Positions 3,979 through 17,422 of a stretch of DNA of 64,000 bases are shown piece after piece. Each line of letters opens with the position of its first letter. The first letter of the stretch is position 1. The DNA is taken from IMG/VR virus record IMGVR_UViG_3300010885_023630, positions 1-64,000 of that record; one strand, written 5' to 3'. The notes under the pieces are model-generated. The model was not told the origin of the DNA. It did not search any database and saw only the letters and a program-made list of their open reading frames with translations. A program made the translations under genes and the position numbers. This stretch comes from a virus.

Positions 3979-4306
3979 AGTATTCAATTTCTTTATATGT
4001 TTCATCTACTTCTAATAATAAGTTAGCATGATTTTTTACTACAGGGAATCCCACTGTAGATTGAGTTAATTTTACGTGGTATACACTATCCTGTGTAATT
4101 AAAATTAGTTTGCCATTGGCTATGCGATATCGAAAATAATTATCATACGTGTTTCTATCCACAACTATGTATTGTGTAGATTCTGGATGTTGGATCATAG
4201 TACATTGTACTATATTTCCATCATTGTTGTAGTGTAATCTATATTCCAGAACTATTGGTTCAAACGATTTAACGTCTGCCCAATAATCAATTTCTTCTTG
4301 ACTCAT
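3959..4306 (-). CDS. Small protein of unknown function
   Basis: 115 residues, not assigned to a function. It looks globular and beta-rich (EYRLHYNNDG, QYIVVDRNTYDNY, GKLILITQDSVYHVKL), with no signal peptide or membrane segment. It resembles a type of small protein that commonly travels with accessory and glycosyltransferase genes in aquatic phages (recollection, unverified). It overlaps both neighbours by about 20 bases, so it is embedded in the same translationally coupled operon and is likely to be expressed with them. Confidence 0.7.
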   Translation of the reverse strand: MSQEEIDYWADVKSFEPIVLEYRLHYNNDGNIVQCTMIQHPESTQYIVVDRNTYDNYFRYRIANGKLILITQDSVYHVKLTQSTVGFPVVKNHANLLLEVDETYKEIEYYDHRHY

Positions 4307-5120
4307 AATATTCTATTAGTTCTTTTGTGGCATAGTTTTTATCGTAGTAGTGCACAGGTTGGTACTGGTTTATGTTATTGATGCGTATAATATCTCCATC
4401 ACGTTCGTTTATTACAGTATCTACCCAACTACGATTGTCATTCCATCCATTGAATCCCGACTTCATGTGTACAAAATTTAAAAAGTCCATACTGGGCAAT
4501 GTGACGTTTTCCTCACCTACCATTAGTGTAGCAATAGCATACACCACATCAGTTGTGGGTTCTTCGTCCACTTGCTTTAACATACTACTTACATTATCCC
4601 AATTATCAAATATGGTTCTTGCGGCACGAAAGAAATCTGTGGCCGCCTGACTAAATCTAAAATACATCAACCCGTTATAGACATCAGGAAGGTTATTGTC
4701 GTCAAACAATTTTCTGTACTTTCTAACAGTACCATGTAGACTTAGATAATTCAATGCTCCTGTACTTAGGCAAATATCTTTGAGTCTAAAAGCAGTCCAC
4801 CAATGATCAATACTACGTGTGAACAATAAATCGCTTTCTAATTTAATTGTTTCTTTAAATGGCGTAAAGTTAAAGGCATGTGTTTCTAAACTAAACGGAT
4901 TTTTGGCATGAGCCACAGGTATAATATAATTAAAAACTTTCTTATGTCGTTCTTCAATGAGCTTGTTGGTTTCTTCATCTACAATGATTGCGTAACTGTT
5001 ACAAGTTTGTGTAGCCTTGACATTTAATGCCTGTAGGTACGCCAACTCTAAATAATTAGTTGTTGAACTGTTAACCGCAACAGTTAGAAAGCCTTGTTGT
5101 TCTTTATGATTCACAAACAA
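4287..5120 (-). CDS. Glycosyltransferase-like protein
   Basis: 277 residues. The N-terminal half reads as a Rossmann/GT-A-like sheet (FLTVAVN, NSYAIIVDEE) followed by TIKLESDLLFTRSIDHWW, where ESDLLF takes the place of the DxD-type strand end found in glycosyltransferases that act with nucleotide sugars. Further on are an N-G-L-M-Y-F-R-F segment and a D-E-E-P-T-T-D-V-VYAIA helix like those near the active site of related phage proteins. The canonical DxD is replaced by E-S-D, so activity is uncertain. It overlaps the upstream glycosyltransferase-like gene by 17 bases, and the two may be distant paralogues. Confidence 0.55.
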   Translation of the reverse strand: MFVNHKEQQGFLTVAVNSSTTNYLELAYLQALNVKATQTCNSYAIIVDEETNKLIEERHKKVFNYIIPVAHAKNPFSLETHAFNFTPFKETIKLESDLLFTRSIDHWWTAFRLKDICLSTGALNYLSLHGTVRKYRKLFDDNNLPDVYNGLMYFRFSQAATDFFRAARTIFDNWDNVSSMLKQVDEEPTTDVVYAIATLMVGEENVTLPSMDFLNFVHMKSGFNGWNDNRSWVDTVINERDGDIIRINNINQYQPVHYYDKNYATKELIEYYESRRN

Positions 5121-5922
5121 CCTCTACTAATTCTTTAAAATTATCACTGAGCAAATAATTTTTATCCATTATATGTATACACTGGTGCGGCACTACTATT
5201 GCCCGACTATCTTGTCGCACTTTTAAAAAATGTTCTGTGTACTCTATATTTGAAATTGGATCAGTTATAGTAAACAAATTCCAAGGTATGCCTTGTTCTT
5301 CGTTTAATGTGTATCCACTTAGGATGCTATTGGCTATGGCAAAGGCATAATCGTTTCTATAATTGCCTTCTCGTATGTTATACAAGGACCTATAGTATCC
5401 GTAGTTCCTTTGTATACGCCCAATTAAATTAAAAAATAATTCAGCACGTTCTGTTTTACGAAATAATACCACAGTGGCCCAAACATAAGGTAAACTAGTT
5501 TCGCCCATGGATTCGTAACTAGGGCCATCTGGTGTTGTATTATGATGTATTAACTTATAGTCAAAGTCTGTTTTAAATAGTTGTAATAAGCTATCATCTA
5601 ACACTACGTAATCTGTATCCAACAATATTGTTTCCTCATACGGACTTAGTTTGTATGCCAAGTATCTGCCAAAGTTACGCCAATTGATTTCTTCTAAACT
5701 ATTATCTAACCTAATAGTACCGCTTTGGTTATCAACTCTAATAATATGATCGTAATTGAATGTAGGTTGGCTATCGGGGTCTGTAATTAATGTAACAGGC
5801 AATCCTAATTTGTGTTTTATTAATTGGCTTGTGCGATCCGCTATACCAACATAATCAAATTTGGTATTAAAAGCAAATACTACAACACCCTTAGACTTTT
5901 CGGATTTTTTTGAGTTCGCCAT
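5104..5922 (-). CDS. Glycosyltransferase-like protein (GT-A, DTD motif)
   Basis: 272 residues. ETILLDTDYVVLDDSL (about residue 98 on) has the DxD motif (DTD) at the end of a hydrophobic strand, typical of GT-A glycosyltransferases of the GT8-like type; the N-terminal strand GVVVFAFNTKFDY and the LPVTLITDPD strand complete the nucleotide-binding half. A YVWATVVLF segment followed by a long helix fits the same fold. Probable reaction: transfer of a hexose-type sugar from a nucleotide donor to an unknown acceptor. It overlaps the 104-residue gene by 32 bases and the next glycosyltransferase-like gene by 17, an arrangement consistent with coordinate expression from the promoter at 6231-6259. Confidence 0.65.
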   Translation of the reverse strand: MANSKKSEKSKGVVVFAFNTKFDYVGIADRTSQLIKHKLGLPVTLITDPDSQPTFNYDHIIRVDNQSGTIRLDNSLEEINWRNFGRYLAYKLSPYEETILLDTDYVVLDDSLLQLFKTDFDYKLIHHNTTPDGPSYESMGETSLPYVWATVVLFRKTERAELFFNLIGRIQRNYGYYRSLYNIREGNYRNDYAFAIANSILSGYTLNEEQGIPWNLFTITDPISNIEYTEHFLKVRQDSRAIVVPHQCIHIMDKNYLLSDNFKELVEVVCES

Positions 5923-8982: not shown

Positions 8983-9007
8983 TTAGATATCCTTTGAGCT
9001 CTTTGTG

Positions 9008-9015
9008 TATTTATA
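9008..9015 (-). promoter_or_regulatory. Late promoter TATAAATA
   Basis: On the minus strand the octamer is exactly TATAAATA followed by C, identical to the T4 late promoter -10 element read by gp55-associated RNA polymerase. It lies 26 bases upstream of the fibre ATG at 8982 with a Shine-Dalgarno AAAGGA between them. Confidence 0.82.
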
Positions 9016-9023
9016 CGTGTTCT

Positions 9024-11039
9024 TTAGTACATTTTCTGAATATAACAAAGGGCATAGTACGGCGGACGATTTTCGTGTGGTTGCCCGCCACCTGTTGTTC
9101 CTGTTGTATCAGATATATTCATACTGTGAATGTGATTGCTTGCGGCTACTACACTGGTAGATACGCCGATTCCGGTTGTTGACGCATTAATAGTTGCTCC
9201 GCCCCAGCCAGTTGCTACAGTATACGGTCCTGTGTATGCCGCGCCGGCTGTAGTAATAACAGAGCCATTTGTTCCGTGTGAGTGTCCCGAATCAGCCACA
9301 GTTGATGTTGCTGAGTGAGTGTGTGTTCCACCAGGATTAGTATTAGCAACAATGGTTATTGGATGGATATGCGGAGGAAGTTGCGTTGTACTTAAAGTTA
9401 CATTGTTGTTTCCGCCTGTTGCTCCAACGGTGTAACTTGATCCTGCGCCAACAATAAATTTATCAGTTAAATTTGGGGTTCCGTTACTGCCATCACATAA
9501 TTGCCAGCCTGTAGGAATAGTATTAGTGGTATTATTCCACATCCAAATAACACCTGCCGGTACTACGCTTTGTACAAAAGCTGTAGTGGCTACGTTGGCA
9601 GTATTGTCGTTGTATGGTTGTGTTGTTGCAACTGTTTGTGTTAACGATACTCTACTGATATTTCCGCCTGTGATAACAGCGGTAGTAATATTAGCAGTAG
9701 TAATATTGGCAACTGTGGCTGCGATTGTTGGAGTAGTAATTTGTGTTGCTGTAATAGATACGCCAGACAGTTGACCAGCTGTTATAACAGCATTGGCTGA
9801 GCTAAAATTATTAATAACTCCCAATGTAGCGTATACATTCGAAAGGTTTGTTAGGTAGCCACCGGCTATTGCTACATTACCTGAGCTAAAATTTGTAGCA
9901 ACTTCTGTTGTAACTGTTGAGTTAGTGATATTACTATTACCAGCTGTGATATTTGCTACACGACTAATATAACCGCCTGAAATAACCGCGTTACCTGTAT
10001 TTAAATTGCCAAGTTGAACCGAATCGGCAGTTAGTCGGGATACATTTAATGTACCACCTGACACTAAAATGTTACTAGAGCTGATGTTATTAAAGTAGGC
10101 TTCTTGAGCATAAACACCAGAAACAGATTTAATAAAGCCGCCTGTAATTGCCACGTTACCTGTTTGTAAATTGGTAGTGGTTAAATTAGTAATTGCAGCA
10201 TTAATGCTTGTTAAATTACCGTTGACATTACCAGTTACGCTACCGACGAATGATGCGTCAGTGCCGGTAGTACCACTATCTAATATTTTAATTCCATTAG
10301 CATATATGTCTCCATAATATGCTGTATCATTTAGTCCAGTGCCAACTTGTAGTACTCGGGTTACGCCGTCTTTGGTATAAACATCACCTAATAAACTTCC
10401 TGCTACATTACCCAATAGGTTAGAATTTAACCTTGTGCCATTGTTAGCAATATTACTGTTTAATGTTAAACCCGGATAAATGGTACTGAATCCGTCCATT
10501 GCCGGACTTGGTAAGAAAGGACCGTCGGCACTAAAAGTACCGTAGGTTACATTGCCAAATTGTATTTTAAATATTCTATGTGTTAAACTTGAGGTAGAGC
10601 CGTCACCCACAGTAGTCGGAAGTAATCCGCTAACACCTTGCTCGCGTGTGTACTGTGGTCCAATAAATTCCCATTTGCTGTTATTATATAGATAAATTTG
10701 GTTGGTACTGGTATTAAACCACATGTCGCCGTCTTTTGCAGCAATAGGCTGTGTACCGGAATTTGTTACCCCTGACACAGGCACATATCCTGCGTCCGAT
10801 GTAAACACTTTTAAAATCTTATTAAACTTGTCAAACCACAACTGACCTTCGGTGTTTGTGCCAACTGGTGCTGTGTTGGCTGCAAAGTTTTCTAATAGAT
10901 ATAATAAATTCTCATTAAGATAACGTCCGTATCCAACGTAGTTAGGCCCAGGCAACTTCAAACTGGTTGAGGTATCTAAAAAACCATCACTGATTGTGGT
11001 TTGTACTGTTCCGTCACTTTTGTATATTGTATACGACAT
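9024..11039 (-). CDS. Tail fibre protein with tail-collar C-terminal domain
   Basis: 671 residues. Residues 1 to about 135 are the shared fibre N-terminal domain (YLNENLLYLLENFA, QLWFDKFNKILKVF, MWFNTSTNQIYLY). Residues about 200-490 are repetitive beta-rich sequence with recurring NxTTxN and ISGGxI units. From about residue 498 a phage tail-collar domain follows (VIWMWNNTT, IPTGWQLCDG, DKFIVGAG), then His-rich elements (PPHIHP, THTHS, GHSHG, NHIHS) like the metal-binding histidines of T4 gp12-type short tail fibres, and a C-terminal ENRPPYYALCYIQK as in collar proteins. Probable role: receptor-binding or short-tail-fibre-like protein. Positionally it occupies the T4 gp9-gp12 zone. Confidence 0.85.
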   Translation of the reverse strand: MSYTIYKSDGTVQTTISDGFLDTSTSLKLPGPNYVGYGRYLNENLLYLLENFAANTAPVGTNTEGQLWFDKFNKILKVFTSDAGYVPVSGVTNSGTQPIAAKDGDMWFNTSTNQIYLYNNSKWEFIGPQYTREQGVSGLLPTTVGDGSTSSLTHRIFKIQFGNVTYGTFSADGPFLPSPAMDGFSTIYPGLTLNSNIANNGTRLNSNLLGNVAGSLLGDVYTKDGVTRVLQVGTGLNDTAYYGDIYANGIKILDSGTTGTDASFVGSVTGNVNGNLTSINAAITNLTTTNLQTGNVAITGGFIKSVSGVYAQEAYFNNISSSNILVSGGTLNVSRLTADSVQLGNLNTGNAVISGGYISRVANITAGNSNITNSTVTTEVATNFSSGNVAIAGGYLTNLSNVYATLGVINNFSSANAVITAGQLSGVSITATQITTPTIAATVANITTANITTAVITGGNISRVSLTQTVATTQPYNDNTANVATTAFVQSVVPAGVIWMWNNTTNTIPTGWQLCDGSNGTPNLTDKFIVGAGSSYTVGATGGNNNVTLSTTQLPPHIHPITIVANTNPGGTHTHSATSTVADSGHSHGTNGSVITTAGAAYTGPYTVATGWGGATINASTTGIGVSTSVVAASNHIHSMNISDTTGTTGGGQPHENRPPYYALCYIQKMY

Positions 11040-11083
11040 ATTTTTATTCTCTTTATACTATACTTATCTAAAACTACCAATAA

Positions 11084-11287
11084 TTACTGTGCGCTGGTCC
11101 ATGCGGCATAACATTCCCCTAGCACTGAGCACTCGTGCCCGCCGTGTAGAATGTAATTAATTAAGGGAATATTAGGAAGTATTTTGCTAAAAATGTCAAT
11201 ATTTTCTGTCAAAATAGCAAACAGAGCCTCTTGCTCTTCTTTGGTTAATGCGTTAACTGTATTAGTTAATTGATCTGCTGTATACAT
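11084..11287 (-). CDS. Small partner of the Gly-rich protein, copy 2
   Basis: 67 residues from the ATG at 11287; a TTG 18 bases further upstream would add six residues, but the ATG has a Shine-Dalgarno-like AAGGAAAG upstream. It is mostly helical: TKEEQEALFAILTENIDIFSK, then PNIPLINYILHGG. The protein at 12159 has the same plan (TEEQQARLFTIVHNNAELFNK, PNMPLIQLILTGG), so the two are paralogues. Each directly follows, with a short overlap, a protein ending in the same Gly-rich/KIICTKL domain, so they probably act with it, as a chaperone, subunit or inhibitor (inference). No known family recognised. Confidence 0.7.
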   Translation of the reverse strand: MYTADQLTNTVNALTKEEQEALFAILTENIDIFSKILPNIPLINYILHGGHECSVLGECYAAWTSAQ

Positions 11288-12146
11288 GTTCTTTCTTTCC
11301 TTCAAATAATCTTCCCAGCTCTGCTACTATTTTAAACATAATAAAAATAGCAATTAGACCCAGGCCTTTAATAAATCCAGCTGGCTTTTTACTTGGGCCA
11401 AATATTCTTTGCCAGACGCCCACTGCTTTACAAATAGGAATGCCTGCGGTTGTAATCCAACGCCCAGTTAAACTACCGGTACTGTGTTTGCCCATCTTAA
11501 ATGCCATTTCTTCTGCCCAGGGCGTAGCAATATCAACTGCCCAACCAATGGACCAACGTTTTGCAGCTACACTAAATTCTTCGTCCGACATCCATGGCAT
11601 CATTTTTGGGCCACTGCCACTCATCCAATCCACTACTATTTCAGCCCACGCACGGTAACCGTTATAGATGTCTGGGCGAATCTTAACTAATTCCGCACCA
11701 AATGCTTGGTCTGCTAGATATATTTCTTCGCTCATTAGCCCTAGTTCGTATAACTTGGTACAGATAATCTTACCTCCACCTCCACCGCCTGCGGACCCGG
11801 TAGGGCCACTGGTAGGAATTACTGCCGGCACTGGTTGCCCAACTGACGCTGGCATTTGACTTGGCAGATCTACTTCATCCCCCCATACAAATGCTATTAT
11901 CCCGTCGCCGCCGGCTCCACCTGCCCAGTTTAAAGGATCTGTACGGTCTGGGCTACTTGCGCCACCGCCACCGGAAGCAACACCACCGGGGGTACCTGTA
12001 GGAGCTCCGGCGCTACTTGTTCCGCCTAGCCCAAATGGACTGTTGCCACCAGCGCCACCGTAGTTAGTAGAGCCGTCATTGTTACCGTCACTGCCTGCGG
12101 CTCCTGCTTCTCCGTTCGGGGTTCCACCTGCTCCACCACCTGCCAT
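11262..12146 (-). CDS. Gly-rich virion protein with KIICTKL C-terminal domain, copy 2
   Basis: 294 residues. Residues 1 to about 130 are almost entirely Gly/Ala/Ser/Pro low-complexity sequence, as in tips of phage adhesins. From GGGGGGKIICTKLYELGLM (about residue 122) to the end is a domain of about 165 residues nearly identical to the C-terminus of the 822-residue protein next door: ADQAFG, DIYNGYRAWAEIVVDWMSG, IATPWAEEMAFKMG, then a hydrophobic segment GFIKGLGLIAIFIMFKIVAE that could span or insert into a membrane. It lacks the lectin-like domains of its neighbour, so it is a shortened copy. It overlaps the following small gene by 26 bases. Confidence 0.75.
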   Translation of the reverse strand: MAGGGAGGTPNGEAGAAGSDGNNDGSTNYGGAGGNSPFGLGGTSSAGAPTGTPGGVASGGGGASSPDRTDPLNWAGGAGGDGIIAFVWGDEVDLPSQMPASVGQPVPAVIPTSGPTGSAGGGGGGKIICTKLYELGLMSEEIYLADQAFGAELVKIRPDIYNGYRAWAEIVVDWMSGSGPKMMPWMSDEEFSVAAKRWSIGWAVDIATPWAEEMAFKMGKHSTGSLTGRWITTAGIPICKAVGVWQRIFGPSKKPAGFIKGLGLIAIFIMFKIVAELGRLFEGKKEHVYSRSIN

Positions 12147-12158
12147 GTTTCTCTCCTG

Positions 12159-12368
12159 TTACTCGTTGGGTTTAACTGAATTGTAAATATCCACAATAGG
12201 ATGAACTACATCAGTTGAACCGCCAGTTAAAATAAGTTGTATTAAGGGCATGTTTGGCATTACCTTATTAAACAATTCAGCATTGTTATGTACTATTGTA
12301 AATAGCCTTGCCTGTTGTTCTTCGGTTAGCCCGTCGATTGCCCTATTTAATGTGCTTATGCTGTGCAT
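12159..12368 (-). CDS. Small partner of the Gly-rich protein, copy 1
   Basis: 69 residues with a clear Shine-Dalgarno sequence (AAGGA) before the ATG at 12368. Predicted helical, with the core TEEQQARLFTIVHNNAELFNK and then PNMPLIQLILTGG, shared with the protein at 11084. It overlaps the end of the 822-residue gene by 13 bases and ends 13 bases before the start of the second Gly-rich gene. Function unknown; always paired with a KIICTKL-domain protein in this window. Confidence 0.72.
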   Translation of the reverse strand: MHSISTLNRAIDGLTEEQQARLFTIVHNNAELFNKVMPNMPLIQLILTGGSTDVVHPIVDIYNSVKPNE

Positions 12369-14824
12369 TTTGTTTCCTTTTTGCCTTCAATTAATCTTCC
12401 AAGTTCAGCAACACCTTTGAACATAATAAAAATACCAATTAAAGATAGCCCTTTAATAAATCCAGCTGGCTTTTTACTTGGGCCAAATATTCTTTGCCAG
12501 ACGCCCACTGCTTTACAAATAGGAATGCCTGCGGCAGTGATCATACAACCAGTTAAACTACCCTCAGACTTTTTGCCCATTTTAAAAGCCATTTCTTCTG
12601 CCCACGGAGTAGCAATATCTTGGGCCCAGCTTATTGACCACTTCTTAGCGGCAACGCTAAATTCTTCGTCCGACATCCATGGCATCATTTTTGGGCCACT
12701 GCCACTCATCCAGTCCACTACTATTTCAGCCCAAGCTCTATATCCGTTATAGATGTCTGGGCGTATTTGAACAAGCTGTGCCCCAAATGCTTGGTCTGCT
12801 AGATATATTTCTTTGCTCATTAGCCCTAGTTCGTATAACTTGGTACAGATAATCTTACCTCCACCTCCGCCTCCACTATCGCTACTAGCTCCGCCAGCGC
12901 CACCATCGCCACCAGTGGCTATTAATGCGCCTTTAATTCCACTTAGTGATGTTGTTCCACCGCCGGCCCCAGCTGGAGCATTGGTAGTTCTTCCCACATA
13001 AGGTGCGCCATCGCCACCTTTACCAACTTGTATTGTTAAAACTTCAAGAGGCACAACCGGGAACGATTGGTTCAATTGATAACCACCGCCACCTCCTCCT
13101 CCGCCTGCAGAGCCCACACCAACTTCTTCACCGCCACCACCGCCACCACCGGCTCCGCCAATATCAACGGTTAAATTATAAATTCCCGGGGGTACAGTAA
13201 ACGTAAATGAGCCAGACTGGTCTGCCAGATAAAAACCTGAGCTTGGGAAGAATTTTTCCCACTTGCCGTTTTGATGGTAAAAGCCTTTGAGCAAAGGTGA
13301 ATAAGTACCACCGTGGTTTGTTACTGCCTTATGACTAATACTACTATCTTCTCTAAATTTATATTTGCTATATATAGACAATAATAAAACTGTTTCTGTT
13401 CCGGTTAATGCGGATATGTTTGTGTCAGCAGATTGGACAGTTGATAAAACATAACGAGGTAATGTAAATGGCCCAGTATATACAGCTTTTCGTACAATTC
13501 GTAGACTTGTCATATACATTTGTGTAAATTTAGTTTTTGTTCTATCAGTGCCAATATACATTACAGTATCTGTGGTAGGAGCAAAGCCATATGCTGTATT
13601 GGACGCAGTTGATGAATCCAATGCTCCATTTACATACCAATAAAGTGTACCACCCTGACGAACTAAAGCTACATGTTTCCATGTATTCATATTAAATGTA
13701 GTCTGCGTAGTTAATTGTGCTACCGCATGAGTTCCAGATCGACCTTCAAACATGAGTTTAGCAGTAGCAAGACTCCATTTAATTCTCCATCCGCCGGCTA
13801 ATGCTTGCCCGTCAGTAAAATCAATTACACCCGCGTCTGCTTGAAATCCCAGTGGGTTAAAATAAAACTCTATAGTAAAATCATCTGGATTAAGTCCAGT
13901 TGCAAAATCAGCACTATACGGTGTAGTTAAATATGCCGTGGCTCCGTTAAAGGACATACTGGCATTGCCCACTGGCATTGTATCTGTTGTTGTTGGTTTA
14001 TTATTATAGGTAAAATTAACAGAGCCAAACGCTGTTTCGTGTGTGGTTATTGGTACTTTAAATGCGCTTGAATCTGTAAGCCAAGTATCTGCTGTATGCG
14101 AGTTTAACAATAATCTTGTCTTGGATCCATCTAAAGCAATAACGTTGTAGGCGTTTGGTTGTACTGTTTTTAATGGCATTGCTGGAACAGTAAAAGGTCC
14201 AGTGTATACCGGAGTACCGACTGTAACTCGATAGTTACAAACGTTTCCTAAAAACTGAGAACCATTAAGGTTCGCTTGACTTTGACCAATACGTATTATG
14301 GAGTCGCCAGAAATATCTTTTGAATTTTGTAATGTGGCTGTTTCAGCAATGCCGTTAATGTACATTGTAATAATGCCATTGTAGCGTACTACTGCCAGGT
14401 GTGTCCATGTTTCGTACTGTATGTTTGAGTAGCTGTTAAATACGCCACCGTTACCAGTAACAACTGATACTTTTTGTAAAGCACTAGATCTGTTTAAGGC
14501 AATTTCAAAAAAATCTTCTGACTGTATATAGGAATCTAAGTTAGAAAAAAGTGTTTGACCAACGTTAGTAGTTTGTTTTAGCCAGTACCAAGTTTCAATA
14601 CAGAAATCATCTGTGCCAAGCATTATAGAACCATGCGGTGCTGTTAAGTACCCGCCGCTGAATTCGATGCTTCCGTTGGTGCTGATTGTAGGCACGTGTC
14701 CATCATATGAAACACTACCGCCGGAATTAATGTAAGGGGAATTAACTGGGTGCCAGCCGGTTCCCTTAGGTCCCGGGCCAAAGTCCGGGCGTTTGATCCA
14801 TATTGCTCTATCTACTGTTGACAT
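12356..14824 (-). CDS. Adhesin with two LamG-like lectin domains, Gly-rich linker and KIICTKL domain
   Basis: 822 residues. Two concanavalin/LamG-type jelly-roll domains are seen: residues about 50-225 (SIEFSGGYLTAPHGS, FCIETWYWLK, WTHLAVVRYNG, MYINGIAET) and about 290-460 (SMSFNGATAYLTTPYS, FTIEFYFNP, WKHVALVRQGG, WYVNGALDSS). Such domains bind glycans. A Gly-rich stretch (about 545-655) leads to a C-terminal domain of about 165 residues nearly identical to that of the 294-residue protein, including the terminal hydrophobic helix. Role: probably a host-surface-binding tail component. It sits among the fibre genes, 4 bases downstream of the fibre at 14828. Confidence 0.8.
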   Translation of the reverse strand: MSTVDRAIWIKRPDFGPGPKGTGWHPVNSPYINSGGSVSYDGHVPTISTNGSIEFSGGYLTAPHGSIMLGTDDFCIETWYWLKQTTNVGQTLFSNLDSYIQSEDFFEIALNRSSALQKVSVVTGNGGVFNSYSNIQYETWTHLAVVRYNGIITMYINGIAETATLQNSKDISGDSIIRIGQSQANLNGSQFLGNVCNYRVTVGTPVYTGPFTVPAMPLKTVQPNAYNVIALDGSKTRLLLNSHTADTWLTDSSAFKVPITTHETAFGSVNFTYNNKPTTTDTMPVGNASMSFNGATAYLTTPYSADFATGLNPDDFTIEFYFNPLGFQADAGVIDFTDGQALAGGWRIKWSLATAKLMFEGRSGTHAVAQLTTQTTFNMNTWKHVALVRQGGTLYWYVNGALDSSTASNTAYGFAPTTDTVMYIGTDRTKTKFTQMYMTSLRIVRKAVYTGPFTLPRYVLSTVQSADTNISALTGTETVLLLSIYSKYKFREDSSISHKAVTNHGGTYSPLLKGFYHQNGKWEKFFPSSGFYLADQSGSFTFTVPPGIYNLTVDIGGAGGGGGGGEEVGVGSAGGGGGGGGYQLNQSFPVVPLEVLTIQVGKGGDGAPYVGRTTNAPAGAGGGTTSLSGIKGALIATGGDGGAGGASSDSGGGGGGKIICTKLYELGLMSKEIYLADQAFGAQLVQIRPDIYNGYRAWAEIVVDWMSGSGPKMMPWMSDEEFSVAAKKWSISWAQDIATPWAEEMAFKMGKKSEGSLTGCMITAAGIPICKAVGVWQRIFGPSKKPAGFIKGLSLIGIFIMFKGVAELGRLIEGKKETKCTA

Positions 14825-14827
14825 CTA

Positions 14828-16717
14828 TTAACCTATCACAAACCAGAAGTCGCCATCGTCTCCTCCGGTCGGTTGGCTAGTAGATACCACGTACTTACTG
14901 CCCATCCAAGTTGCCCGAGAGCTTGTTATCTCCGATTGTACATACTGTGTGGTTGCTATTTTTTGACTATTATCGGCACTAGCCGGAGTTGGCGCAGTCG
15001 GAACCCCAGTGAATACCGGAGTATCTTTTGGGGCCAACGGTGCTACTGCTACAGCTAACGCATTTTCTAATACACTTTTTATATTAGTTATTTTAGCATT
15101 ATAATCTGTGTATAATAAATTAGCAGTTGTGTCAACATACATGGTTGTTGATATTGTGCCGCTATAATCGCCAATGCCTCTGTAGGCAATGTCTGGGCCG
15201 AGATATGCTATTTTTTCAATCCAGACAGCAGGTTGTATCAGTTGTCCATTTATTTCAATCAAACTGGACTGGAATGGTTGTATGCCTGTTGTTATACTAC
15301 CACTGGTTATTGTAACATTAACAACGTTACCTCTTACATTTGCATCATGTACTTGTAAATTTGCCAAGGTAACTAATGTATGAGAATCAAGTTGGCTAAT
15401 GATGTCGCCGTATTTAACGCCAATGTTATCGCTTAAAGATATTTGGTACGGATTTAATCCGGGCCCAAGACTTCTAAAATACGTTAAAAGTTTTTCTACA
15501 GGAGGTACAACTGGATTTCCAGTGAACGTTGGGCTGTTGATATTTGCCTTGGTAGCTGTTATGTTGCTTAGTGTTCCAATGTTGCCTGTAAGAACACCTA
15601 AGTTAGAATTAATTATACCAACGTTTGATAAAAACGCTGTATTAAGATTATTTACAGTACTATTAATTCCATTGACAGCTTGGTTTAAGTTTGCGTTGGT
15701 TGCGTTAACTACCACAACAATGTTTGATTGATAATCAATTAAAACTTGATCAACGTCTGCTTTAATTTGCCCTTCAAGTTCTTGTATATAATCTACAGTA
15801 GCATTAACTGTTTGATCTACATAGCCTTTATTAGCAATATCTGCGTCGGCTACAGGACTGTGAGCGACTCTAGCAATTCCGGTTGCGCCATTGATGTTTA
15901 ATGCTCGCTGATTGCCTACATATAGATCAATATTACCACCGCGAGTATTCTTTACAAGTAAATTATTATTGTTAACAAAAACGTTTGCGGTATTATTACC
16001 GATTACAATGTTTCCGTTAAAGAAATTATTCTGGTTAAATTGATTATCTATATCAAGTCTTGAGAAGACGTTGGCATATAAACTACCAACACGAATACTG
16101 TTATTTGCTGTACCATTTAAGATTGATACATTAGATAAATTTATTCCCCGACGTAAAATAACTTCAAATCCCGGAATAGGGCTCTGCGGGATAAATTCAT
16201 TGCCGCAAGTAATAGATACTAAAGCATTACTAACGTAGTTATTAATAACAGTTTGAACGTTGCCAAAGTTGTCGGTAATTGATTCTACTATGGCACCTGT
16301 TTTGCCCTGTGTTGTTGAATATGCTGGCCCAATTAATAACCATTCAGTACCCGACCATACACTCAATTGATTATTGTTGGTATTCCACCATTGGTCGCCA
16401 ATTCTTGTGGTTGTTGGCGCTGTACTCGAAACAGCACGTTGACTTACTGCTACAAACGATGAACCATTGAAAACTTTTAATAACTGGTTACCGGTGTCCC
16501 ACCATAGTGTTCCAATAATTGGATTAAATCCAACACTTTGCCCTGGCGGTATTGGTGCTGCAAAATTTTCCAATAAACGTACAAAGTTTTCATTTTGTAT
16601 TTCGCCGTAGCTGGTAAAGTTACGCCCGATTAAGGTAAGACCTGTATCGGTGTTTGTTGTTCCGTCTAGTAGTGTTGCTAGAACGTTGCCATCAGTTTTA
16701 TTAACAATGTAACTCAT
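14828..16717 (-). CDS. Tail fibre protein, shared N-terminal domain
   Basis: 629 residues. The N-terminus (about 1-135) has the shared fibre pattern: GRNFTSYGEIQNENFVRLLENFA, GTLWWDTGNQLLKVF, QWWNTNNNQLSVWSG. The middle contains heptad-like segments (about 300-400; DYIQELEGQIKADVDQVL, then repeated NLNxAVNxINSTVNNLNTA) suggesting a trimeric coiled coil. Near the C-terminus is KIATTQYVQSEI, an element common in fibres, and it ends GGDDGDFWFVIG. Role: virion fibre, possibly proximal. Ribosome site AGGATAA lies before the ATG at 16717. It has a C-terminus different from the other two fibres, fitting modular exchange of tips. Confidence 0.75.
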   Translation of the reverse strand: MSYIVNKTDGNVLATLLDGTTNTDTGLTLIGRNFTSYGEIQNENFVRLLENFAAPIPPGQSVGFNPIIGTLWWDTGNQLLKVFNGSSFVAVSQRAVSSTAPTTTRIGDQWWNTNNNQLSVWSGTEWLLIGPAYSTTQGKTGAIVESITDNFGNVQTVINNYVSNALVSITCGNEFIPQSPIPGFEVILRRGINLSNVSILNGTANNSIRVGSLYANVFSRLDIDNQFNQNNFFNGNIVIGNNTANVFVNNNNLLVKNTRGGNIDLYVGNQRALNINGATGIARVAHSPVADADIANKGYVDQTVNATVDYIQELEGQIKADVDQVLIDYQSNIVVVVNATNANLNQAVNGINSTVNNLNTAFLSNVGIINSNLGVLTGNIGTLSNITATKANINSPTFTGNPVVPPVEKLLTYFRSLGPGLNPYQISLSDNIGVKYGDIISQLDSHTLVTLANLQVHDANVRGNVVNVTITSGSITTGIQPFQSSLIEINGQLIQPAVWIEKIAYLGPDIAYRGIGDYSGTISTTMYVDTTANLLYTDYNAKITNIKSVLENALAVAVAPLAPKDTPVFTGVPTAPTPASADNSQKIATTQYVQSEITSSRATWMGSKYVVSTSQPTGGDDGDFWFVIG

Positions 16718-16723
16718 AATTTA

Positions 16724-17422
16724 TTATCCTGTTGATGTCAAGTTAGTTAATGTTTGAATACGTACAGTATAATCAATTTGAATTAGTCGATTTAATGCTT
16801 TTTGTACTGGGTGAAAAACCACGTGTGTTAGTAGTAATCCAGTTGACAATAGTCCGCTTGTACCGTCGCTACTGCGACCTCGCAAGCCTAGTTCATCAAA
16901 AACATATTCACCGTTTAAGTCTTGACTATTATCAAATAATTGTTGTCCGTTTGGTTCGCCGTAGTCTAGTAGACAACTTACCAAAATGTCAGTATAGACT
17001 TTACCCGGAACGTGGCTAATTGTCATACTATTGTTTAAAGGGTCTGTGTTTAATGCCGAAGTGTTATCAACAATTTTACTGTAAGTTGGATTATATAAAT
17101 TACTATTTTGTCCTACAGTATTTGTAGGCAAATATGTAATAATACCGGTGGTATCTACGCTTGTGCCACCGTTACCAAAATTCATTTCATAGATAAAGTT
17201 TTGACTTTTGTTGCCAATACTGTTGGCCAAAGCCACGGAAAAGTTTTCATAGTGGATAGCGTTGGATTTGTTGATATAAACTTCACCAGATTCTGGATCA
17301 AAGATCTTGATATGGCCGCGGATATAAATTCCACTGGATTCGTCTGGTTGTTTTTCTGTATTTTCCACTGCTTTTTCCTCTAAATTGTTGTCTTCTGACA
17401 TCGATGTATCAGTATTTATCAT
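16724..17422 (-). CDS. Baseplate/tail structural protein in the gp8 position
   Basis: 232 residues. The start at 17422 overlaps the stop of the giant gene (ATGA) and has GAGGG at good spacing; an internal ATG at 17401 lies just after a TAAATA site and could serve a late transcript. After an acidic N-terminus (about 30 residues) comes a beta-rich globular part (GIYIRGHIKIFDPESGEVY, NFIYEMNFGNGG, RLIQIDYTVRIQTL). In T4 the gene order is 6-7-8-9, so position suggests a wedge component analogous to gp8, but I do not recognise gp8 in the sequence itself. Confidence 0.6.
   Translation of the reverse strand: MINTDTSMSEDNNLEEKAVENTEKQPDESSGIYIRGHIKIFDPESGEVYINKSNAIHYENFSVALANSIGNKSQNFIYEMNFGNGGTSVDTTGIITYLPTNTVGQNSNLYNPTYSKIVDNTSALNTDPLNNSMTISHVPGKVYTDILVSCLLDYGEPNGQQLFDNSQDLNGEYVFDELGLRGRSSDGTSGLLSTGLLLTHVVFHPVQKALNRLIQIDYTVRIQTLTNLTSTG
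17413..17420 (-). promoter_or_regulatory. Late promoter-like GATAAATA
   Basis: Minus-strand GATAAATA followed by C, inside the first codons of the gp8-position gene as annotated. It would place a start point just before the internal ATG at 17401. Confidence 0.45.

What the first reader, a model, noticed from the sequence alone, without database searches (positions are those of the whole stretch)
11084..14824. Duplicated two-gene module: Gly-rich/KIICTKL protein plus small helical partner
The last about 165 codons of the 822- and 294-residue genes are nearly identical at DNA level (for example 11332-11420 versus 12446-12535), and each is followed, with overlap, by a paralogous protein of 67-69 residues. 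The shared domain ends in a hydrophobic helix, unusual for an adhesin. The recurrent pairing suggests a functional two-component unit (tip plus chaperone, or effector plus partner).
Basis: partly seen in the sequence, partly recalled or inferred. Interest (0 to 1): 0.76.

Follow-up and report, generated by a model that had tools for sequence, protein, structure and literature searches.

The report
Paired tail-protein cassette splitting an adhesin
A freshwater phage carries two copies of an undescribed helical domain, each at the end of a tail protein and each followed by its own small partner gene; related phages show that this two-gene cassette recurs on many kinds of tail protein and is repeatedly found inserted in a glycine-rich adhesin domain, which is thereby encoded as two separate chains.

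Summary
The shared C-terminal domain ("K", about 165 codons) is 86% identical between copies at DNA level: patchy, with one 85-nt identical run, and under protein-level constraint. Each copy overlaps a helical ORF of 67 or 69 residues. K matches no Pfam, PHROG, NCBIfam or PDB entry; AlphaFold gives a confident six-helix fold (pLDDT 92) without a PDB match. Among 86 non-redundant K domains in environmental phages, 66 are followed at once by a partner of one of a few small families, on Gly-rich, Cys/Asn-rich, gp5-hub and other proteins. K domains ending giant DUF4815 proteins lack it. Relatives show the same split at three different positions. In marine phages a partner itself carries a second K and is followed by another partner. 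Best reading: K is a portable docking module of virion proteins with a dedicated partner. Binding is inferred; a fused AlphaFold model (pTM 0.67) did not show it. Chaperone and effector/immunity readings remain open.

The parts
12356..14824 (-). Gene 1, 822 aa: two LamG/ConA-like domains, first half (A) of a Gly-rich domain, then K2
14165..14620 (-). first LamG-like domain (residues 69-220 of gene 1)
   Evidence: PHROG matches phrog_13163 and phrog_1469 at residues 69-220; Pfam Laminin_G_3 with 2 stretches
13484..13945 (-). second LamG-like domain (residues 294-447)
   Evidence: PF13385 2.7e-31
12857..13216 (-). A half of the Gly-rich domain (Gly_rich_2 profile 3-111 of 226)
   Evidence: phrog_863 match ends at profile position 519
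12359..12856 (-). K2 domain (KIICTKL..., C-terminal hydrophobic helix)
12159..12368 (-). partner s2, 69 aa, overlaps the K2 gene by 13 nt
   Evidence: partner family a
12153..12157 (-). AGGAG, ribosome-binding-site-like sequence in front of the ATG of gene 2, so the second half has its own start
   Evidence: upstream cgagtaacaggagagaaac-ATG
11262..12146 (-). Gene 2, 294 aa: second half (B) of the Gly-rich domain, linker, K1
11883..12140 (-). B half of the Gly-rich domain (weak match to Gly_rich_2 profile 134-225, E 0.56; relatives match phrog_863 from 518/523)
11265..11771 (-). K1 domain; AlphaFold: six helices, pLDDT 91.6, pTM 0.83
11084..11287 (-). partner s1, 67 aa, overlaps the K1 gene by 26 nt
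14828..16717 (-). flanking tail-fibre gene (629 aa), syntenic in related phages
9024..11039 (-). flanking tail-fibre gene (671 aa), syntenic in related phages

Best explanation
K is a portable all-helical C-terminal module of exposed phage virion proteins, and the small gene behind it encodes a dedicated partner that most likely binds K. The pair travels as a cassette, coupled by overlapping or abutting stop and start codons. K is joined through a Gly or Pro linker to fibres, to gp5-like baseplate hubs and to other tail proteins, and can be exchanged there. In the window and its relatives the cassette sits in a loop of a Gly-rich adhesin-like domain. The gene is thereby split: the first half carries K at its end, the second half starts anew with its own ATG, and the two chains must associate to rebuild the domain. 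K would thus act as a socket at the tail tip. The partner would fill it, perhaps also covering K's hydrophobic last helix before assembly, and in some phages extend the chain because the partner carries a further K. SHOWN by sequence: the families, the pairing, the spread over different carriers, the split of the Gly-rich domain at three positions, the exchange of K types in one syntenic slot, and the partner-K fusions. INFERRED: binding of K and partner, reassembly of the two half-domains, presence in the virion, and the function at the tip.
For: Pairing: partner family directly behind K in 66 of 86 non-redundant K, enrichment 58% against 11%, junctions mostly -8..+3 nt. Partner types a, b1 and b2 are one family (hhalign 91-99%) although their carriers differ: Gly-rich, Cys/Asn-rich. 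Type d52 (a to d52: HMM E 0.0013-0.0026, hhalign 65%) follows K on gp5-OB baseplate hub proteins. Converse: 14 of 14 b1 partners are behind K. Split domain: window A matches Gly_rich_2 3-111 and B 134-225; A ends at 519 and B of relatives starts at 518/523 of the uninterrupted profile phrog_863. Against an intact single-chain domain (L048), L001 A/B align to 3-76/62-214 and L040 A/B to 1-155/144-193, z 3 to 15 against shuffles, so the split sites differ. Exchange: the window K is 76-81% identical to K of non-syntenic phages but 39-42% to K in the same slot of syntenic L090. Chain: in L100-L114 the partner (type c) is fused to a second K' (99.9% related to K) that is followed by a 59-aa ORF. 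Cultured phages have the pair: SynMITS9220M01 genes 028/029 and HMO-2011 gp49 plus an unannotated 65-aa ORF.
Against: No direct evidence of binding: the fused model gave pTM 0.67, with only two partner sequences in the alignment. K occurs without a partner on DUF4815 giants, on two split-domain proteins (L040 first K, L043 second K) and in bacteria. Partner type c also follows other Cys-led C-terminal domains: L145 directly, L144 after a P450 gene, so it is not strictly K-specific. Partners are unrelated between types a and c. Nothing shows that K or its partner is in the virion. The window B half alone matches Gly_rich_2 only weakly (E 0.56).
Confidence: 0.5

Rival explanations
1. Fibre plus assembly chaperone: the small protein is a dedicated chaperone that keeps the hydrophobic K helix soluble and helps trimer assembly, and is not part of the mature virion (as Tfa/gp38-type or Pam3 gp25-type chaperones follow their fibre genes).
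For: Position directly behind the fibre gene and translational overlap. The last helix of K is hydrophobic in 52 of 60 K (19-residue mean of at least 1.6). Pam3 gp25 is a known fibre chaperone for a fibre with a glycine-rich domain (PMC9608196).
Against: A partner that itself carries a K domain and is followed by another partner is odd for a chaperone. K varies little (mean 70% identity) while partners vary much (34%). K with hydrophobic helices also occurs without a partner.
Confidence: 0.25
2. Effector plus protective partner: K is a membrane-active or toxic C-terminal domain carried to the host by fibre or spike, and the small protein neutralises it in the producing cell.
For: Variable carriers with a conserved C-terminal domain behind a Gly/Pro linker and a small gene at once behind it. 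K at the end of gp5-like puncturing hub proteins. A Hint domain directly before K in L072, and before K in L045. Hydrophobic last helix.
Against: The conserved residues are mostly small or aromatic, with no evident catalytic cluster. In toxin-immunity pairs the toxin usually diversifies, whereas here K is the conserved member. Many K lack a partner. K of HMO-2011 and of L054 lack the hydrophobic last helix.
Confidence: 0.15
3. Inherited gene order only: the small genes are conserved neighbours without physical link to K, and the split Gly-rich genes are decay products of larger adhesins.
For: Related phages share gene order around the fibres, and phage genes are often tightly packed (11% background).
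Against: The pair recurs on unrelated carriers and in other genomic places. K type and partner type cluster together on the K tree (16 changes against 35 in shuffles). The second halves keep open frames, and in the window a ribosome-binding-site-like AGGAG; the split recurs at three sites.
Confidence: 0.1

Closest known systems
T2/S16/PP01 gp38 tail-tip adhesin (polyglycine-II sandwich with loops that bind the receptor; PMC12892980)
   Same: Gly-rich scaffold in a tail-fibre region, with other sequence inserted between Gly-rich stretches
   Different: gp38 is one chain with short variable loops; here a whole conserved helical domain plus a second gene sits in the loop and breaks the chain. PGII structure was not tested.
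Myocyanophage Pam3 fibre gp24 and chaperone gp25 (PMC9608196)
   Same: fibre with a glycine-rich domain and a dedicated partner protein
   Different: gp25 has a beta-sandwich plus helical domain and binds the TNF-like and Gly-rich parts; the partners here are 50-150 aa and mostly helical by prediction; homology was not tested
CFI-box-CTERM domain (NCBIfam NF041770)
   Same: the partner of locus L058 passes its cut-off (44.9 bits, cut-off 40) and groups with partner family c; both K and CFI-box begin with a conserved Cys motif
   Different: K itself does not match it, and K shows no detectable relation to partner family c
Polymorphic toxin / immunity gene pairs
   Same: exchangeable carrier, conserved C-terminal domain, small gene directly behind; a Hint domain before K in two loci
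   Different: the C-terminal domain is the conserved member and the partner the variable one; no toxicity known

Membership tests
Gly_rich_2 (PF21722) domain protein | profile match over the family's cut-off | tested here: met
   A half 34.9 bits in hmmscan (39.7 in the genome search), cut-off 24.3, but only profile 3-111; B half weak (E 0.56) at 134-225
gp38-type PGII tail-tip adhesin | polyglycine-II sandwich that binds the receptor through its loops | not testable with these tools
   no model of the split domain could be made; known PGII members described in PMC12892980
CFI-box-CTERM (NF041770) | K passes the curated score | tested here: not met
   no match for either window K protein up to E 5
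CFI-box-CTERM (NF041770) | partner family c passes the curated score | tested here: inconclusive
   the L058 member passes at 44.9 bits; it groups with type c by blastp and HMM; other members were not scanned with NCBIfam
Polymorphic toxin with immunity gene | toxic C-terminal domain neutralised by the next gene's product | not testable with these tools
   needs expression; only the architecture is similar
Tail fibre plus assembly chaperone | partner binds the fibre and is needed for its folding | tested here: inconclusive
   fused K-partner model pTM 0.67, partner alignment two rows deep
Split or whole intein | Hint/intein domain at the split | tested here: not met
   no Hint or intein match in the window proteins; the second half starts with its own ATG
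Self-splicing intron | intron RNA family at the split | tested here: not met
   no Rfam match at E up to 1 in 9000-17000

The most novel reading that the evidence does not exclude
K and its partners form a family of plug-and-socket connectors with which phages build tail tips from several chains. The two-gene cassette inserts into loops of Gly-rich adhesins, whose fold is then rebuilt from two polypeptides, and chains of K and partner can be extended (A-K : c-K' : s).
Probability: 0.35. Interest if true: 0.8.

Novelty: new variant of a known kind. Interest (0 to 1): 0.6.

Why it matters
K is a widespread, unannotated domain of phage structural proteins in freshwater and marine phages, and HMO-2011 and SynMITS9220M01 give cultured phages in which to study it. 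If the docking reading is right, it shows a modular way of building and exchanging tail tips and of splitting an adhesin fold over two genes, which would matter for predicting host range and for annotating tail proteins.

Tried and rejected
Pfam, PHROG, NCBIfam and PDB sequence searches for K: nothing significant. Foldseek/PDB: no match at E <= 0.001, and the VIA-align second look gave best Z 4.6, in the range of chance for helical bundles. BFVD: only other phage K proteins. Intein or self-splicing intron joining the two Gly-rich halves: no support. K as a CFI-box domain, a lead from memory: not met. Relation of K to partner family c or a by profile alignment: none. A fused K-partner model of L002/L005/L043 by a frame-shift word: the structure tool does not accept that word, so the natural stop read-through fusion of L027 was used instead and was inconclusive. 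Unfused partner rows were misaligned by MAFFT and left out. Search for relatives of the isolated B half: none, low complexity. An uninterrupted relative at the window's own split site was not found among the fetched loci; phrog_863 and intact domains of other carriers served instead.

Full report
OBSERVATION. On the minus strand between two tail-fibre genes lie an 822-aa gene (12356-14824), a 69-aa gene (12159-12368), a 294-aa gene (11262-12146) and a 67-aa gene (11084-11287). The two large genes end in the same ~165-residue domain, called K here after its start KIICTKL. Over 480 nt the copies are 85.8% identical, in patches (60-nt blocks 73-98%, longest identical run 85 nt, permutation p = 0.0002), with 36 synonymous and 15 non-synonymous codon differences. 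This fits protein-level constraint plus possible gene conversion. K1 and K2 are sisters on the K tree, yet the two partners are only 34% identical, no more than partners of unrelated phages. So the K copies are homogenised or recently duplicated, while the partners are not recent copies of each other. The record holding the window is a 126,980-base virus record with exactly these two K copies.

THE DOMAIN. K has no significant match in Pfam, PHROGs, NCBIfam or PDB sequences. AlphaFold with 60 aligned K gives a confident six-helix fold (pLDDT 91.6, pTM 0.83). No PDB fold matches, and only phage proteins match in BFVD, among them what is probably the SynMITS9220M01 protein (same length, 616 aa) and a DUF4815 protein. 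The last helix is hydrophobic in 52 of 60 K, but K of HMO-2011 and of a Sneathiella genome lack it, so it is an addition to a five-helix core. Cys4 and the ADQ-FG, YNGYRAWA-IVVDWM and PWAE motifs are nearly invariant.

THE PARTNER. K was found in 48 viral contigs by direct search and in 186 stretches by profile, in two cultured phages and rarely in bacterial genomes. Of 86 non-redundant complete K, 66 are followed at once by a member of a few small families. The partner models were partly built from the same loci, but the loci fetched (L094 onward) were new to them and matched model c at 1e-18 to 1e-42. Partner types a, b1 and b2 are one family; d52 is probably related; c is unrelated, and its L058 member passes the CFI-box-CTERM cut-off. 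As a control, 34 of 311 other large genes in the same loci are followed by a small gene in this way, against 49 of 85 K genes. All 14 relatives of partner b1 found on their own lie behind K; of 11 relatives of partner c, most lie behind K, one follows another Cys-led domain (L145), one lies behind a P450 gene (L144) and one is truncated. K domains ending giant DUF4815 or Hint-bearing proteins have no partner.

THE CARRIERS. K ends Gly-rich tail proteins, Cys/Asn-rich proteins, gp5-OB baseplate hub proteins (L064, L065), DUF4815 giants, a protein between the head-tail adaptor and coat genes of HMO-2011, and a bacterial protein whose start looks like a signal peptide (by eye, L053). K type and partner type are clustered on the K tree (16 changes, shuffled mean 35). 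The window K is closer to K in phages with other surroundings (76-81%) than to K in the syntenic slot of L090 (39-42%), so K is exchanged at this place.

THE SPLIT DOMAIN. The 822-aa protein carries the first half of Gly_rich_2 (profile 3-111) directly before K2. The 294-aa protein begins with the end of that domain (134-225, weak) and has a ribosome-binding-site-like AGGAG before its own ATG. In the uninterrupted PHROG profile phrog_863 the window A half ends at 519, and the B halves of L043 and L004 begin at 518 and 523. In L090, L040, L043, L004 and L048 the gene behind the cassette is likewise the missing half. In L001, L003, L013 and L024 the split lies elsewhere in the domain, and in the first cassette of L040 and L043 at a third place. 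The halves align to complementary parts of an intact single-chain domain with z-scores of 3 to 15 against shuffles. No intein or known intron lies at the split.

CHAINS. In marine phages L100-L114 an intact Gly-rich protein ending in K is followed by a partner of type c that is fused to a second, shorter K' (profile match to K 99.9%), followed in turn by a 59-aa ORF. This nested order, like B-K-s in the window, suggests that partners are structural members which can themselves carry a socket. It is the main reason for preferring docking over a plain chaperone.

LIMITS. Binding is not shown. A fusion by natural stop read-through of L027 gave pTM 0.67 against 0.83 for K alone, with a partner alignment two rows deep and a different partner subtype. 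Membership in the virion, reassembly of the two half-domains and the function at the tip are inferences. Loci counts are not independent, since contigs share ancestry.

VERDICT. A real, recurrent two-gene unit with an undescribed domain. Its most unusual feature, the division of a Gly-rich domain over two genes by an inserted cassette, was not in the original finding. It works like a tail-protein module with a cognate partner, and it is not shown to be a member of any known family.

Noticed in passing
L006, L007, L010, L011, L021, L026, L028, L031, L033-L035, L037-L039, L047, L052, L057, L070, L071 downstream of K (e.g. L052:2311-4868); L062 has the last gene only: The Cys/Asn-rich K proteins and their partners are followed by an operon of two to four Fe(II)/2-oxoglutarate oxygenase-like genes, in most loci including an Asp/Asn beta-hydroxylase (PF13759, PF05118). 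This suggests hydroxylation of the NCxNC-rich tail protein, as of EGF-like domains elsewhere; not tested.
   Followed up: partly
L045:3795-5027 and L144:1795-2997: Cytochrome P450 genes (PF00067, 8.5e-18 and 5.9e-32) lie directly behind a K protein (L045) and behind a tail protein with a CFI-box-like C-terminal end (L144).
   Followed up: partly
L045:2269-3792 and L072:2-4525: A Hint domain (PF05203 3.5e-10 and 3.7e-9) lies before K, in L072 immediately before it, which could release K by self-cleavage.
   Followed up: no
L002:2564-4477: A different non-Gly-rich segment (PA14-like by eye) is inserted in line in the Gly-rich domain, at about the place where L001 carries the K cassette: the loops seem to be general insertion points.
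   Followed up: no
L056:5354-5548 (Puniceispirillum phage HMO-2011): A 65-aa ORF overlapping gp49 by 1 nt is not annotated in the record but matches the partner type of L027.
   Followed up: partly
G000:C1:120763-121086 (+), in the window's record but outside the window: The window's own phage record encodes an Asp/Asn beta-hydroxylase relative (PF05118 37 bits), not next to the K genes.
   Followed up: partly
L004:4939-5685 and L145:2500-2994: Another Cys-led C-terminal domain (CCVxSxALA... with a hydrophobic end) occupies the place of K behind a Gly-rich half (L004) or before a type c partner (L145); no family matched.
   Followed up: no
window 4287-5922 (-): Two overlapping genes near the fibre genes look like glycosyltransferases by eye, but gave no Pfam match.
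   Followed up: partly
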